A stretch of 64,000 nt of DNA. It comes from Coniochaeta sp. PMI_546. Its lineage: Eukaryota > Ascomycota > Sordariomycetes > Coniochaetales > Coniochaetaceae. Under the pieces are notes generated by a model. That model worked only from the letters and a program-made list of their open reading frames with translations. It had not been told where the DNA came from and made no database searches. The position numbers and the translations under genes are program-made. Position 1 is the stretch's first letter, and every line of letters starts with the position of its first letter. This document shows positions 38,897 to 54,102 of this stretch, piece after piece. Location: positions 2,799,277 to 2,863,276 of the forward strand of contig MU271143.1 of the NCBI GenBank assembly GCA_021432605.1, in the 5' to 3' direction.

Positions 38897-41474
38897 TCAA
38901 CCGATATCCCACTGGTCGTCACCGGCAACGTCGTAATCCATCTCCACCTGCTCCTCAGGCTGCTGCTGCTCCTGCATCGCGACGTCCTTATCATCGCGGG
39001 CATCGGGTCTAGCCTGGTCCCTGTGCTCCTCGCCCGCAGCAGCAGCTTTCCCTGCTCGCGCGCCTCCGCCGTTGGCGGCCGGAGAGCTGCCGGCTGTGGA
39101 CGAGCCTGCCTGGTCCGTGACCCAGCTCAGCTCGATCTGGCCGTCGATGCCGGGTATCTGCTTGTTCGGCAGGCCGTAGAAGAACTTCTCCGCCGTCTTC
39201 CTGTCCTTGAACGTGATGGTCGTCGCGGCCGACGTCTCGTGGATGTCCGTGAACTCGCCAATGCCCTGGAAATCACAGTTAGCAACGCGCCTCTCAACCT
39301 CCACCATCAAAAAGAGAGAGAGAGTGACAGAGGAAGGATAGTAGCAAAAAAGACTCACAAATAAAAACTGCTTCAGCTTCTCCCCCTTAACCTCATCCGT
39401 GAAGTCCACCCCCGTCACGGCAACCTTCTTGGGCCGATTATCAATCGAATACGCCGCATAAGCAGCATGCCCGCCGCCCCTCGCAGCCCCTACTCCTCCC
39501 CGACCGCGGTACCCCCCCGCGCCCCGGGGTACGTACCCTCCCCTACCCCTGGGCGCGAACCCACCCCTCCCGCGTCCCCTGTACGCCCCTCTATAACTAA
39601 ACCCGCCCCATGGCTGCTCCTCCTCCGGCACAGCATCGGGATCGATACCCAACTGCTTCGCCTCGGCCTCGAGCGCAGCCAACTGCGCCCGCAGCGCCTC
39701 GCTCTGAGAAGTCGGCGTCTTCTTCATCTTCTCCCCGCCCTCGTCGTGGCCCGAGTCGGACCCCGCCTCCTTCTTGCCCGAGGTCAGCGCCGCGATCCTA
39801 GCGTACAGCCTCTGCCTCTCCGCCTGCTGCTTGGCTAGCAGCTCCTTCTGCTTGCGCTCCAGCTCCTCGCGCTGCCGCTCGATCTCGGCCGCCTTCCGCT
39901 GCTTCTCGACAAAGGCCCTCTGCGCCTCTTCCTGCCTGCGGAGGAAGTCCTCCATGTCGATCTCGGGGGCTGCTGCTGCTGCTCCTGCTGCTGCCGCCGG
40001 CGCGGCCGAGGCGCTGCCTTCCCTGGCGGCGGCGGCGGCAGTGGCTGCGGCGTTCTTGCTGCCTCCGGCGGGGGAGGTTTCCTCGTCCGCGTCCTTGTAC
40101 CAGAAGACCTTGACGAAGCGGTTGTCGAATATGACCTTTGGGCTGCGGTAGGCGGCGTTGGCGGCGTTCCAGGAGTCGAACTTGACGATGGCCAGGTGCT
40201 TGTAGGGCCTCATCGACACCTCGACGATGTTGCCGTACTGCGAGAAGAAGGTCCGCACCTCGTCCTCGCTGAAGTGGTCTTCCGGTATGTTCTCCACTAC
40301 TATCGTCGACTTTGTCTTGTCCAGGACGGGCCCTTCGGCTGAGAAGGCCGCTCTCCGAGTGCCTTTCCGCGGGAATCTCGGCTTGCCGTTGTGTGATGGG
40401 CGCTGGAAGTTGTTGTCTGGTTTGAATGGCTGGTTGGATTGTGCCGTGTTTGGGAGAGGCATTTGGGACAGTAGCATGCCCGCGTTGGACGGGTCGTATT
40501 CTGGAGCATAGTCAGCACAAGCGCAGTGGATTGGAATATAGGAGAAGAGGGGTCCTACCTTCATGACCTGGTGACTGCGGCAGTGGCATCACCGGTGGCA
40601 CGAATATCGAGTCCGTGCCATGCTCAAACATACAGCTGCTGCCCCTGGCACAGTACCCTTTCGTATCGTAATCTCGACACCGCTGCCTCCTCCTCGGCGG
40701 CTGTTTGGAATGCTGCTGCTGCTGCTGCCCCGGTTGTGGAAACGGTGGCAACGGCGGCAGGGGCAAGCCCATGGCCTGCAGCCTCATCATCGCCTCCATG
40801 GGATTGTTTGGGTCGAAGCTGTTCGGATCGAAGGGCTGTTGCGCGCCGGGGGTGGGAGCCCCATACGTCGGTGGAATCTGATAGACGCCCGCGGCAGGGT
40901 AGCCGCCGGTCGCCGAGCCTCCTCGGAAGCCATTCGCGTCGTCCATCCTCCCGCCTCGGCCGCGGCGCGGCTGCTTATACGACCTTGGCTGATTGTTGTA
41001 ATAGTCCGCCGCATCCTGCATCTGCACATCGCCGCGGTCGTGATACGAGCGCTTCCTCGAACCGTTCTGCGTCAGTGGGTCTGAAGGCGCCGGTAGGTCA
41101 TCGTACGGCAAGCCTTGCGGCGGAACAGCAGCGGCGTTGGGTCGCGGTAGCCCTCCGCCGGGCAGATATGACCTGTACTGAATCGCGTTGAACACATCGT
41201 TGACGAAGACGCTGGTATCCTCCTTGAGAAAATCCGGTATCTCGGCTTCGCAGAGCGCCCGCACCTCCTCGACGGTGCCCTCGTGGCGCAGGAGGGCGAG
41301 GACGTATTCGGCTAGGACGTCGGCGTCGGCATCGGAGCTGACCATCACGAATAGGTTAGTATGGCCCATCGGATCAGATCAGAGAGGTAGTGCAGGGGGA
41401 TCAGCATACGTGTTCTCGAGTCGTTTTATAATCCATGCCTTCAGCAGGGACGCATCCTCTTCTGGAAACAACAT
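38897..41474 (-). CDS. RBM26/27-like RNA-binding protein (PWI-like, CCCH, RRM)
   Basis: Predicted nuclear RNA-binding protein related to human RBM26/27 and fission yeast Rmn1, factors tied to nuclear RNA surveillance (MTREC/PAXT). Exons 41474-41410, 41337-40559, 40500-39359, 39265-38897; phases agree; predicted 784 residues. Order: PWI-like N-terminus (LKAWIIKRLENT joined to SDADADVLAEYVLALL); basic RG patches; poly-Gln; one CCCH finger CRDYDTKGYC-x5-C-x3-H near residue 240; first RRM (STIVVENIPEDHF, HLAIVKFDSW); an E/K/Q-rich coiled coil (about residues 450-510); an RGG block (RGRGRGGFAPRGRGG); second RRM-like fold (KKVAVTGVDF .. FKDRKTAEKFFYGL); acidic C-terminus. The exon-2/3 join at phase 1 (..PGHEEYDPSN..) and the exon-3/4 join (..KQFLFGIGEF..) restore both domains. 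Start is the ATG at 41474; the longer frame begins at GTG. Confidence 0.87.
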
Positions 41475-48218: not shown

Positions 48219-50608
48219 ATGCTACGCTCCGGCCAGGCCACTCGGGCCGTCACCAAGGCCCTCGCCCAGCGCCAATCCTGCCATTCTCGCTCTCTCACCA
48301 CTTCTCCCGCCGTCTCAGCCATCACAGCACCACGGAAGGTACCGTCAACCGTAAGGAATCAAGCTACCTCTGCTGCCGCCAATCCCACCGCTGCGTAAGT
48401 CCTCTTGCTGGTCGCGAGACTGAGTGAGCCCTCGCAGAGTTCGCTGTGACTCACCGTCAGCACACGACAACGACTAACATGGCTTTCCACACAGCGAGGC
48501 CCGGCCAAAACCTAGTCCTTCCTTCAACCCTGGCGATTCCAAGACCAGGCACCATGTCCAGCCTCTGGTCAATCCTCGCCAAGGCGAGATGGATGAATCG
48601 TATGCTTACCGCCCCCCCGATCGCTTGGCCCAAGTCTGCGCAACAGGGATGACTAACATCCGCGTGTTTACAGGTTTATTGGCAAGACTGGAGGAGAGAT
48701 ATTCCACGAGATGATGTTGAGGCAGGGAGTGAAGCATATCTGTGAGTCAGGTACATGCTTTGGCTTCCTTAGTCACGGCTAACACGATATTGCAGTCGGC
48801 TACCCGGGTGGCGCTATTCTGCCCGTGTTCGACGCCATCTACAACTCGAAACACTTTGACTTCATCCTACCAAAACACGAACAAGGAGCCGGCCACATGG
48901 CTGAAGGTTATGCACGAGCTTCCGGCAAGCCAGGCGTGGTCCTGGTCACGTCTGGCCCTGGTGCCACCAATGTCGTGACACCCATGGCGGATGCACTGGC
49001 CGACGGTACCCCAATGGTTGTTTTCAGTGGTCAGGTCGTCACCTCAGCAATTGGCAGTGATGCTTTCCAGGAAGCCGATGTCATTGGAATCTCGCGGGCT
49101 TGCACAAAGTGGAATGTTATGGTGAAGAACGTCGCCGAGCTGCCCAAGCGCATCAACGAGGCCTTCGAGATCGCTACTAGTGGACGCCCGGGACCAGTTC
49201 TCGTGGATCTGCCCAAGGACATCACTGCGGGTGTCCTACGGAGAGCTATCCCGACCGAGTCCACTCTTCCGCCGCTGCCCAGTGCTGCTTCTCGCGCTGT
49301 CCAGGAGCTAACTCAGCGCCAGCTTGACGGGTCGATCCGCCGCGTTGCCGACCTGGTCAACATCGCCAAGCAGCCCGTTATCTATGCTGGCCAAGGTATC
49401 ATCCAGTCTGAGGGCGGCGTTGAGCTTCTCAAAGAGTTTGCCGACAAGACCTCCATTCCCGTGACCACAACGCTGCACGGCCTGGGTGCCTTCGACGAGC
49501 TGGACGAGAAGTCTCTGCACATGCTCGGTATGCACGGCTCAGCATATGCCAACATGGCGATGCAGAACGCGGATCTCATCATCTGCCTAGGCGGCCGCTT
49601 TGATGACCGTGTGACGCTCGCCATCAATAAGTTTGCCCCTGCGGCCAAGGCTGCCGCTGCTGAGGGCCGGGGAGGCATCGTTCACTTCGAGATCCTGCCC
49701 AAGAACATCAACAAGGTCGTCCAGGCTACCGAGGCCGTAGAGGGCGATGTTGCGTCGAATCTCCAACGTCTCCTCCCTCACGTGGAAATTAGGACCATGG
49801 CCGACCGGAAGCATTGGTTCGACCAGATCAACGCGTGGAAGAAGAAGTGGCCCCTGGGAGATTTCGAGCGGGCGGAACGGTCTGGCTTGATCAAGCCCCA
49901 GACTCTGATTGAGGAGCTCAGCACTTTGACGGCAAATCGGAAGGAGCAGACCGTGATCACGACCGGCGTAGGCCAACACCAAATGTGGACTGCGCAACAT
50001 TTCCGGTGGAGGTATCCTCGGACCATGATTACATCTGGAGGTCTCGGAACCATGGGTTACGGTCTGCCCGCGGCGATCGGTGCCAAGGTCGCACGGCCTG
50101 ACGCTCTCGTCATCGACATTGATGGCGACGCATCCTTCAACATGACCCTGACTGAGCTGTCGACCGCAGCCCAATTCAACATTGGCGTCAAGGTTATCGT
50201 CCTGAACAACGAGGAGCAAGGAATGGTGACGCAATGGCAGAACCTCTTCTACGAGGATCGCTACTCTCACACTCACCAGAAGAACCCGGATTTCATGAAG
50301 CTTTCCGATGCTATGGGTATCCAGCACCGTCGCGTGTCCAAGCCGGAAGAGGTCGTTGAGGCTCTTCAGTGGCTGATCGACAGCGATGGCCCTGCTCTGT
50401 TGGAGGTTATCACCGACAAGAAGGTGCCTGTCCTCCCCATGGTGCCTGCTGGATGTGGTTTGCATGAGTTCATCGCTTGGGACGGTGGTATGTGTTTTCG
50501 CCCCCTTACTCTATTTCTCGAAAATCAGCATGCTAACACTCTCCAATAGCCAAGGACAAGGCCCGGAGAGAACTGATGAAGAAGCGGACTAGTGGTCTGC
50601 ACTCGTAG
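48219..50608 (+). CDS. ILV2: Acetolactate synthase catalytic subunit, mitochondrial
   Basis: TPP- and FAD-dependent enzyme that makes acetolactate or acetohydroxybutyrate, the first common step to valine, leucine and isoleucine; target of sulfonylurea-type inhibitors. Exons 48219-48394, 48495-48599, 48674-48741, 48796-50487, 50550-50608; predicted 699 residues. Residues 1-60 form an Arg/Ser/Thr-rich mitochondrial transit peptide (MLRSGQATRAVTKALAQRQS). Spliced core: GKTGGEIFHEMML, QGVKHIFGYPGGAILPVFD, PKHEQGAGHMAEGYAR with the TPP-activating Glu, LVTSGPGATN, VVFSGQV, RPGPVLVDLPKD, GGRFDDRV, and the TPP site GDASFNMTLTEL .. LNNEEQGMV. The final exon supplies AKDKARRELMKKRTSGLHS. All joins keep phase (2, 2, 1, 1). 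Intron 1 carries a GCN4-type TGACTCA. Confidence 0.96.
48447..48453. promoter_or_regulatory. GCN4/CPC1-type TGACTCA in ILV2 intron 1
   Basis: A perfect TGACTCA lies inside the first ILV2 intron, about 230 bp downstream of the start codon. ILV genes are under general amino-acid control in fungi, but function of an intronic site here is only a possibility. Confidence 0.25.
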
Positions 50609-51318: not shown

Positions 51319-51475
51319 CTACTTGGTCTTCTGTGAGTTGGGTTAGCGTATACTACTCGATGACAAGCCAGTTGGGTTCGGGGCCGGTCATTACCACGGG
51401 GCAGTTCGGGCAAGTGCAAGTTTCTCCGCAGCCACATTTGCCGCTTGTGGAGCATCCGCAGTCTTCTCCTGCCAT
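51319..51475 (-). CDS. Copper metallothionein (Neurospora type), 30 residues
   Basis: Tiny cytosolic metal-binding protein expected to chelate Cu(I). The unspliced frame from the ATG at 51475 gives 40 residues with seven Cys in the order CxC-x5-CxC-x3-CxC-x2-C, identical in spacing to the 25-residue Neurospora crassa copper metallothionein. Splicing fits better: exon 1 51475-51395, intron of 64 nt (donor GTAATG, branch GCTAAC, acceptor CTCACAG), exon 2 51330-51319 encoding KTK and a stop, giving 30 residues that end in Lys as the Neurospora protein does. Segments seen: GEDCGC, GKCGCG, TCTCPNC. There are no aromatic residues and no His in the spliced form. It is far too short for usual gene callers. 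Two tandem palindromes lie about 210-255 bp upstream. Expression and metal are unproven. Confidence 0.85.
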
Positions 51476-51683
51476 GGTTGACTTTGATATCTCTGTAGTT
51501 TTTGGGGAAAGCTACACTGTTGTGGTGGTGGTTCCTGATGATTTTGATATGAACAGAAGAGAAGAAATCTTGGTGGGGATTATCAGCCGAGTCAACGAGG
51601 TGGTCGTCTACAATACTTGGTCTTAAACATTCAGCTCCTGGGCTACCTAGACGTCTGTCATGAAAGGCGTGGAGTGACAATGA

Positions 51684-51728
51684 CGCTGACCATCGTCAGC
51701 GGTTGATCATCGGTCAGATGACTGACCG
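51684..51728. promoter_or_regulatory. Two tandem 7-4-7 palindromes, possible Zn2Cys6 or metal-response sites
   Basis: Palindrome 1 (51684-51701) is CGCTGAC-CATC-GTCAGCG and palindrome 2 (51711-51728) is CGGTCAG-ATGA-CTGACCG. Both have perfect 7-bp arms and 4-bp spacers; nine bases lie between them and contain TTGATCA. The second has CGG and CCG at its ends with 12 bases between, a typical form for a dimeric Zn2Cys6 site. They sit about 210-255 bp upstream of the metallothionein start and about 760 bp upstream of GAL1. Confidence 0.5.
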
Positions 51729-51996
51729 GGATCGATGGGCTTTGAGCTCACCGAGGTAAGGTGAGGTAGTCTGGATCAACTTGGACCTCGGTTCCATCAC
51801 TAGGCAAGTAGCATCTTGTCGTTGGCATTGGAAATCTTTGTGTTTTTCTCTCTCTAGAACACACGGACTGAATCGTCCTCATCCTCTCAGCTCTGTTCAG
51901 CGTTGCTACAACCGGAGCTCTCTCCGGTCGCCCCGCTCGCACGCCTCTCACTATTCGAGTGTTCTCATTACTCGCATCGCGGTCGCCATGATAAAT

Positions 51997-52485: not shown

Positions 52486-54102
52486 ATGGCCGGAACAGTC
52501 CCCACAGCTCGCTCCCTGCAAGACATCTACACCCACGACACCAGGACGACGCTGGCCCAGGGCAAGCGGTGGCATGACCTCCTCACGCAGTTCAAGGCCA
52601 CCTACGGCCACGACGCCGAGTTCGTCTCGCGCTCCCCGGGCCGCGTGAACATCATCGGCGAGCACATCGACTACTCGCTGTACCCGGTCCTGCCCATGGC
52701 CATCAACGAGGACGCCATCCTCGCCGTCGCCACGCGGCCGAGCGACGACGACTCCAACGGCACCTTCAAGATCCAGATCGCCAACTTGCAGAGTGACAAG
52801 TTCCCCTCGCACGAGTTCGACATCCCCTACGACGCCGTCGACATCGACGCCACCGTGCACGAGTGGACCAACTACTTCAAGTCCGGCCTGCGCGGCGCCC
52901 TCGAGCTCCTCAGGAGGAAGAAGAAGCACGCCGACTTCAGGCCCAAGAGCATGCAGATCCTCATGCACGGCACCGTCCCCGCGGGAGGCGGTCTGAGCTC
53001 GAGCGCCGCCTTCGTCACCGCCAGCGCCCTGGCCGTCCTGGTCGCCAACGGCGAGAGGGACGTGGACAAGACGGAGCTCACCGAGCTCGCCATCGTCAGC
53101 GAGCGCGCCGTCGGCGTCAACTCGGGCGGCATGGACCAGTCCGCCTCCGTCTTCTCCGAGCGCGGCAGCGCCGTCTACGTCTCCTTCGCCCCCAAGCTCA
53201 CCGCGCGGCCCGTCAACATCCCCAAGACGCGGCCCGAGCTGACCTTCCTGATCGCCCAGTCCTTCGTCGCGGCCGACAAGCACGTCACGGGGCCGATCCA
53301 TTACAACCTCCGCGTCGTCGAGTGCAGCCTGGCAGCCGCCTACCTCAACGCCGCCCTCAACCCGCCCTCCACCCACCTCCCCGGCGACGCGGCGCCGCTC
53401 GGCATCAGCCTGCACGGCTTCCACGAGACCTACTTTGCCCTGCAGCACCACGACAACAACCCCTCCTCCTCCGACACCAGGGCGCCCACCCTGCCCGAGG
53501 AGCTCACCGAGCTGGTCCGCCTGACCAAGGCGACCCTCACCCGGGAAGAGGGCTACACGCGCGAGGAGATCGCGGCCGCGCTGGGCATTACCGTGGCCCA
53601 GCTCGAGGCGCGCTTCACCTCCCGCTTCCCCGTGCGCGCCGAGCGGTTCAAGCTGAGGCAGCGCGCGCTGCACGTCTTCTCCGAGGCGCTGCGGGTCGTC
53701 CGGTTCCTGGAGCTGCTCGAGCACCCGGACAAGCGGCCCAAGGCCGCCGGCGGTGACGACGAGGACACGAGCGAGTACAACGCCAGGCTCGGCGCCCTGC
53801 TCAACGAGACGCAGGACTCGTGCCGCGACGTGTACGAGTGCAGCTGCCCGGAGATCGACGAGCTGTGCGCCATCGCCAGGAGGGCGGGCAGCTACGGCTC
53901 CCGGCTGACGGGTGCCGGCTGGGGGGGTTGCAGCGTGCACCTCGTGCCCGCCGACAAGGTTGGCGCCGTCAGGGAGGCGTGGGAGAGGGAGTACTACTCC
54001 AAGATGGACCTGACGCCGGAGCAGAAGGACGCCGCGGTCGTGGTCAGTTCGCCGGGGAGCGGGAGCGCTGTGTACTTTGTGGCTGAGGGATCTTTACAAT
54101 GA
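52486..54102 (+). CDS. GAL1: Galactokinase
   Basis: GHMP-family kinase that phosphorylates D-galactose at C1 in the Leloir pathway, cytosolic. Single exon, 538 residues, close to the usual fungal length. Seen in order: SRSPGRVNIIGEHIDYSLYP, the galactokinase signature, near residues 48-67; the glycine-rich ATP loop GTVPAGGGLSSSAAF near 165-180; GVNSGGMDQSAS near 210, with the catalytic Asp; and motif III GSRLTGAGWGGCSVHL near 475. The start follows directly from MAGTVPTARSLQDIY, which matches the typical N-terminal helix. Third positions are very GC-rich compared with neighbours, creating long open frames on the opposite strand. Convergent with PEX12, only 183 bp apart. Confidence 0.96.
   Translation: MAGTVPTARSLQDIYTHDTRTTLAQGKRWHDLLTQFKATYGHDAEFVSRSPGRVNIIGEHIDYSLYPVLPMAINEDAILAVATRPSDDDSNGTFKIQIANLQSDKFPSHEFDIPYDAVDIDATVHEWTNYFKSGLRGALELLRRKKKHADFRPKSMQILMHGTVPAGGGLSSSAAFVTASALAVLVANGERDVDKTELTELAIVSERAVGVNSGGMDQSASVFSERGSAVYVSFAPKLTARPVNIPKTRPELTFLIAQSFVAADKHVTGPIHYNLRVVECSLAAAYLNAALNPPSTHLPGDAAPLGISLHGFHETYFALQHHDNNPSSSDTRAPTLPEELTELVRLTKATLTREEGYTREEIAAALGITVAQLEARFTSRFPVRAERFKLRQRALHVFSEALRVVRFLELLEHPDKRPKAAGGDDEDTSEYNARLGALLNETQDSCRDVYECSCPEIDELCAIARRAGSYGSRLTGAGWGGCSVHLVPADKVGAVREAWEREYYSKMDLTPEQKDAAVVVSSPGSGSAVYFVAEGSLQ

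What the first reader, a model, noticed from the sequence alone, without database searches (positions are those of the whole stretch)
51319..51475. Hidden 30-residue copper metallothionein gene
Seven cysteines in the exact order CxC-x5-CxC-x3-CxC-x2-C appear in a minus-strand frame too short for standard gene calling. The spacing equals that of the Neurospora crassa copper metallothionein (established knowledge). A GTAATG..GCTAAC..CACAG intron removes a looser extension and leaves a KTK end. Such genes are routinely missed in annotations.
Basis: partly seen in the sequence, partly recalled or inferred. Interest (0 to 1): 0.75.

Follow-up and report, generated by a model that had tools for sequence, protein, structure and literature searches.

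The report
Small overlooked fungal copper metallothionein gene
A tiny gene in a fungus encodes a short cysteine-rich protein of the well-known kind that binds copper; it looks real and was missed by at least one large gene catalogue, but it is an ordinary new member of a known family.

Summary
On the minus strand, 51475-51395 encodes MAGEDCGCSTSGKCGCGETCTCPNCPV, with seven Cys in CxC-x5-CxC-x3-CxC-x2-C; no other frame of the window has that order and 5e-6 are expected. The spacing equals that of Neurospora crassa copper metallothionein. Closest by residues is Podospora anserina PODANS_3_3165 (16 of 23 identical; x4 instead of x3). The adjacent galactokinase is 91% identical to one of Coniochaeta sp. 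2T2.1, so the host is Coniochaeta-like. Two protein searches returned no entry for this gene, although that database holds the galactokinase from the same contig: 'missed by gene calling' is supported for that database. The 64-nt intron fits at its 3' end and gives a Lys-ending tail like the relatives, but its donor GTAATG is weak; a 40-residue unspliced product is not excluded. Codon statistics give no support. Expression, copper induction and metal binding were not testable. Verdict: very probably a genuine copper-type metallothionein gene, a new member of a known kind, of low surprise.

The parts
51395..51475 (-). Exon 1 of the metallothionein gene: MAGEDCGCSTSGKCGCGETCTCPNCPV
   Evidence: relatives
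51401..51460 (-). Seven-cysteine motif CxC-x5-CxC-x3-CxC-x2-C
   Evidence: one in the window, 5e-6 expected; same spacing as N. crassa P0124
51331..51394 (-). Candidate 64-nt spliceosomal intron GTAATG...GCTAAC...CACAG (inferred; weak donor)
   Evidence: donor survey
51342..51347 (-). Branch-site-like GCTAAC
   Evidence: of five NCT[AG]AC sites in the 900 nt around the gene, one of two followed by a YAG in range
51319..51330 (-). Candidate exon 2: K T K stop
   Evidence: Lys end shared with P0124 and P0126
51353..51475 (-). Alternative unspliced ORF, 40 residues plus stop
51476..51487 (-). Start context TCAAAGTCAACC before ATGG; nearest upstream ATG at -155 (330 nt looked at)
51583..51901 (-). 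Stretch with six GCTGA pentamers upstream; possible but unproven copper-fist sites
   Evidence: 6 in 500 bp against a mean of 1.27, word chosen after seeing it; longer yeast consensus forms absent or at background
52486..54102 (+). Divergent neighbour: galactokinase
48825..50549 (+). Convergent neighbour: thiamine pyrophosphate enzyme (acetolactate synthase is my reading; 5' part not resolved)

Best explanation
A nuclear gene of a Coniochaeta-like fungus encodes a 30-residue (or, if unspliced, 40-residue) copper metallothionein. Its seven cysteines wrap a small cluster of Cu(I) ions and so keep free copper low. Most likely it is switched on by excess copper through the AceA-type copper-fist factor found elsewhere in the genome, and works beside P-type copper pumps. 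Shown here: the sequence, the Cys spacing, the relatives, and that the genome holds copper-fist and heavy-metal ATPase genes. Inferred: splicing, copper binding, induction, and which factor acts. The confidence is for the gene being a metallothionein of this type, spliced or not; for the regulatory step it is about 0.5.
For: Cys pattern not chance. An alignment search of 5.77 billion proteins returned 6 proteins, among them N. crassa copper metallothionein (E 9e-4; a piece of it was in the query) and P. anserina PODANS_3_3165 (E 0.67; not in the query). PODANS_3_3165 shares 16 of 23 residues, all seven Cys among them. 13 columns are invariant over four sequences, two of which are near-identical Neurospora entries. 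Nearest upstream ATG at -155. Own space between a convergent and a divergent gene. The genome holds two copper-fist loci and three loci over the heavy-metal ATPase cut-off. Copper induces the metallothionein transcript of Podospora (PMC2654708, passages).
Against: No expression data. Pfam Metallothio is below its cut-off (17.5 of 23 bits), though Pfam finds nothing in the N. crassa protein either. Best solved-structure match has E 0.09. The best hit is a fish chain (E 9e-5) whose relative was in the query. Codon statistics give no support, and both shifted frames score higher. Longer yeast copper-site consensus forms are not enriched upstream. No Coniochaeta protein relative was returned. Loss of the longer metallothionein CrdA had no copper phenotype in Fusarium graminearum and Aspergillus nidulans (PMC7333239, PMC5447758, passages), so the importance for copper tolerance may be small.
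Confidence: 0.85

Rival explanations
1. A sub-form of the best explanation: a real metallothionein that is read without splicing, giving a 40-residue protein that ends VVMTGPEPNWLVIE.
For: The ORF is open to 51353. The donor GTAATG is atypical: 17 of 23 roughly inferred introns offer a +5 G donor, and none of the 23 donors picked was GTAATG. The site differs from that inferred for Neurospora and Podospora MT1.
Against: The tail would carry Trp and hydrophobic residues, whereas the relatives P0124 and P0126 have short tails ending in Lys. A GCTAAC branch and CACAG acceptor lie where splicing gives KTK stop.
Confidence: 0.3
2. A metallothionein used mainly for another metal (zinc, cadmium) or as an antioxidant rather than for copper detoxification.
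For: A similar CxC arrangement occurs in the fish metallothionein chain returned here. CrdA of A. [quoted passage not shown]
Against: Identical spacing to a protein named copper metallothionein; the Podospora metallothionein gene responds to copper.
Confidence: 0.12
3. A decayed or silent metallothionein copy.
For: Weak splice donor, unremarkable codon usage, no known copper-site consensus enriched.
Against: Start, frame and all seven Cys are intact.
Confidence: 0.06
4. A chance open frame.
For: It is short, codon statistics do not favour it, and Cys-dense frames occur elsewhere in the window.
Against: 5e-6 of this pattern expected per window, 0 in 40 Markov copies; residues beyond Cys are shared with Podospora.
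Confidence: 0.01

Closest known systems
Neurospora crassa copper metallothionein (P0124; the chain of 1t2y has the same letters over the part shown)
   Same: Identical spacing of all seven Cys; DCGCS near the start, Asn before the last Cys, terminal Lys.
   Different: 26 against 30 residues; Gly/Ser-rich between the Cys, where this one has Thr, Glu, Pro and Lys; intron inferred at another place.
Podospora anserina PODANS_3_3165 (P0126, 31 aa, source name 'uncharacterized protein')
   Same: DCGCSTSG-C-C...CTC-NCP, 16 of 23 residues identical, short tail ending in Lys.
   Different: One residue more between the second and third CxC; has a His in the tail; gene structure and neighbours not available to me.
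Podospora anserina MT1
   Same: Copper-induced metallothionein of a sordariomycete (PMC2654708, passages).
   Different: Another gene than PODANS_3_3165: its primers imply a start MGGSCN and an end SCSGCK, with an intron apparently inside the Cys region (my reading of the primers).
Aspergillus nidulans CrdA
   Same: Putative metallothionein with CxC clusters, metal induced (PMC5447758, passages).
   Different: Larger, 16 Cys and seven CxC clusters.

Membership tests
N. crassa-type fungal copper metallothionein | Seven Cys in CxC-x5-CxC-x3-CxC-x2-C | tested here: met
N. crassa-type fungal copper metallothionein | Very short protein without aromatic residues or His | tested here: inconclusive
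   True of the spliced 30-residue form; the unspliced form holds one Trp, and splicing is not proven
N. crassa-type fungal copper metallothionein | Similarity beyond the Cys | tested here: met
   D5, G7, S9, N24 and a terminal Lys invariant over four sequences; 16 of 23 with P0126
N. crassa-type fungal copper metallothionein | Intron at the position inferred for Neurospora and Podospora MT1 (fifth Cys codon); not treated by me as defining | tested here: not met
   The fifth Cys codon is uninterrupted here; the other position is inferred from P0127 and primers
Pfam PF00131 Metallothio | Score over the curated cut-off | tested here: not met
   17.5 of 23 bits; not filed there. P0124 and P0126 match no Pfam family at E 10
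copper metallothionein (function) | Binds Cu(I) and is induced by copper | not testable with these tools
   no expression or binding data
copper-fist-regulated gene | Known copper-fist target sites upstream | tested here: inconclusive
   1010 bp upstream: HTHNNGCTGD 0 sites, DWDDHGCTGD 1 (background mean 1.28); GCTGA 6, a word chosen after seeing it. The motifs are recalled from yeasts

The most novel reading that the evidence does not exclude
This gene and PODANS_3_3165 form a second, uncharacterised lineage of tiny sordariomycete metallothioneins beside the classical copper metallothionein gene, and here retention or removal of a weak-donor intron after the last Cys switches the protein between a Lys tail and a longer hydrophobic tail.
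Probability: 0.1. Interest if true: 0.4.

Novelty: new member of a known kind. Interest (0 to 1): 0.22.

Why it matters
It adds a member to a small set of tiny fungal metallothioneins and points to a likely function for a Podospora protein named only 'uncharacterized'. It shows in one concrete case that a gene of this size was absent from a protein database that covers its own contig, which bears on counts of metallothioneins in fungi. It does not change ideas about how metallothioneins work.

Tried and rejected
Pfam gave a sub-threshold Metallothio hit and NCBIfam nothing; Pfam finds nothing in the N. crassa and Podospora relatives either, so this carries little weight. Codon log-odds and synonymous usage did not support coding. 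A first splice survey was too strict and kept one acceptor; the relaxed one kept 23 at its loosest threshold, 13 and 8 at stricter ones.

Upstream sites: GCTGA looked enriched (6 against a mean of 1.27, reached by 2 of 508 windows, of which by my reckoning one overlaps the region itself), but GCTG was not (6 against 5.98), and the longer forms were absent or at background. GCTGAC near -225 also resembles a branch site. I therefore claim no regulation from sites.

A second metallothionein in the genome was sought with PF00131, a 23-residue N. crassa piece and P0126. All three missed even the known locus, so absence of a paralogue is not shown; the gene's own sequence found one place.

Papers: Coniochaeta with metallothionein, 0 in the held library; locus tags around PODANS_3_3165, for synteny, 0. 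Searches gave listings only, apart from passages then read in four papers; PMC12508003 is not used. Rfam and tRNA scans were empty and the bacterial promoter scan was at chance. No structure was predicted, since a 30-residue metal-cluster peptide would not be modelled meaningfully. Fungal genomes other than the window's own could not be scanned, so conservation at DNA level was not tested.

Full report
What is there. The minus strand from 51475 encodes MAGEDCGCSTSGKCGCGETCTCPNCPV, followed by a candidate 64-nt intron and then K T K stop. Without splicing the ORF has 40 residues. The seven-Cys order CxC-x5-CxC-x3-CxC-x2-C occurs once in the six frames of the window. About 5.3e-6 are expected per window and 0.003 per 33.5 Mb from the Cys frequency, and 40 Markov copies of the window held none. 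Cys density alone would be weaker evidence, since two GCT-rich runs give frames with 7 and 9 Cys per 20 residues. Codon log-odds speak against the frame rather than for it: -4.8, lower than both shifted frames, in a weak model that penalises Cys-rich protein. Synonymous choice is neutral.

Setting. The gene lies between a convergent thiamine pyrophosphate enzyme, which I read as acetolactate synthase, and a divergent galactokinase. The galactokinase is 91% identical to one named for Coniochaeta sp. 2T2.1, so the host is Coniochaeta-like; the species is not known to me. The genome held has 33.5 Mb in 24 contigs. The start context is TCAAAGTCAACC before ATGG, and in the 330 nt looked at the nearest upstream ATG is at -155.

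Relatives. A search with the 40-residue ORF alone found nothing. An alignment of the ORF, the spliced form, a piece of the N. crassa protein and a piece of a fish metallothionein returned six proteins: two fish entries (best E 9e-5), N. crassa copper metallothionein and a synthetic copy of it (E 9e-4 and 8e-4), a N. tetrasperma entry (E 5.6) and P. anserina PODANS_3_3165 (E 0.67). The fish and Neurospora hits are partly by construction, as pieces of them were in the query; PODANS_3_3165 was not. Its E-value against the whole database is not significant by itself, but it shares 16 of 23 residues with the gene in direct comparison, including DCGCSTSG and NCP. N. crassa has the same Cys spacing; PODANS_3_3165 has one residue more in one gap. 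The best solved-structure match by sequence is 1t2y at E 0.09.

Hidden or not. The protein database lists the galactokinase that the window encodes with a longest contig of 4343278 bases, the length of the window's own contig. Searches returned no protein identical to this gene, although one of 22-70 residues would share many words with the query. So it is missing from that database; whether another annotation holds it is unknown. PMC7394265, seen as a listing with the start of its abstract, says that small ORFs are often overlooked in standard gene prediction. N. tetrasperma P0127 suggests a related error: 28 extra residues inside the Cys region that look like a retained intron (my reading).

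The intron. For it: GCTAAC with eleven bases from there to the end of CACAG, an in-frame stop if retained, and a short Lys-ending tail as in N. crassa and Podospora. Against it: GTAATG has T at +5. In a rough survey of the window and 150 kb of the same genome, 17 of 23 acceptors with coding-like flanks had a +5 G donor and 6 had none; none of the 23 donors picked was GTAATG. That survey picked +5 G donors wherever one was available, which favours them, and it does not include this gene. A second donor, GTGGTA three bases upstream, keeps the frame and drops the Val. The position also differs from the one that I infer for Neurospora (P0127) and for Podospora MT1, whose genomic reverse primer carries an acceptor-like CTATAG before the codons for SCSGCK (PMC2654708, passages).

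How it most likely works. Metallothioneins of this spacing hold a Cu(I)-thiolate cluster (recalled, for the N. crassa protein). The Podospora metallothionein transcript is induced by 250 uM CuSO4. The genome holds two copper-fist loci. The one on contig 10 has a CCCNHGGRCTCCHKK stretch that I read as AceA-type, the one on contig 15 has C-terminal CxC repeats that I read as Mac1-type; both types are recalled. Three loci exceed the heavy-metal P-type ATPase cut-off. So parts of the expected circuit exist, but no step from copper to this gene was shown. Upstream, six GCTGA words lie in 500 bp against a mean of 1.27, a word chosen after seeing it, while the longer yeast forms are absent or at background. 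The role may be modest: loss of CrdA had no copper phenotype in F. graminearum or A. nidulans (passages), while F. oxysporum Mt1 is cited in the former as mattering for metal resistance.

Verdict. It is a new member of a known kind.

Noticed in passing
window 39960-40030 and 40681-40740: GCTGCTGCT-type runs that read as Cys-dense frames on the plus strand; probably Gln/Ala runs of another gene on the other strand, not metallothioneins.
   Followed up: partly
window 51655-51751: Upstream of the gene on its strand, GTGAGC (51751), GCTGAC (51700) and a CAG (51655) could form a 5' leader intron; transcription start unknown.
   Followed up: no
L018:5276-5800: Copper-fist gene, AceA-type by my reading, apparently split by at least two small introns with GTGAGT and GTGAGC donors.
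   Followed up: partly
L019:4679-6403: Second copper-fist gene, with C-terminal CxC repeats of the Mac1 type by my reading.
   Followed up: partly
protein P0127: Neurospora tetrasperma metallothionein entry of 54 residues that seems to include a retained intron, a possible annotation error.
   Followed up: partly
protein P0126: Podospora anserina PODANS_3_3165, named uncharacterized, looks like a metallothionein other than MT1.
   Followed up: partly
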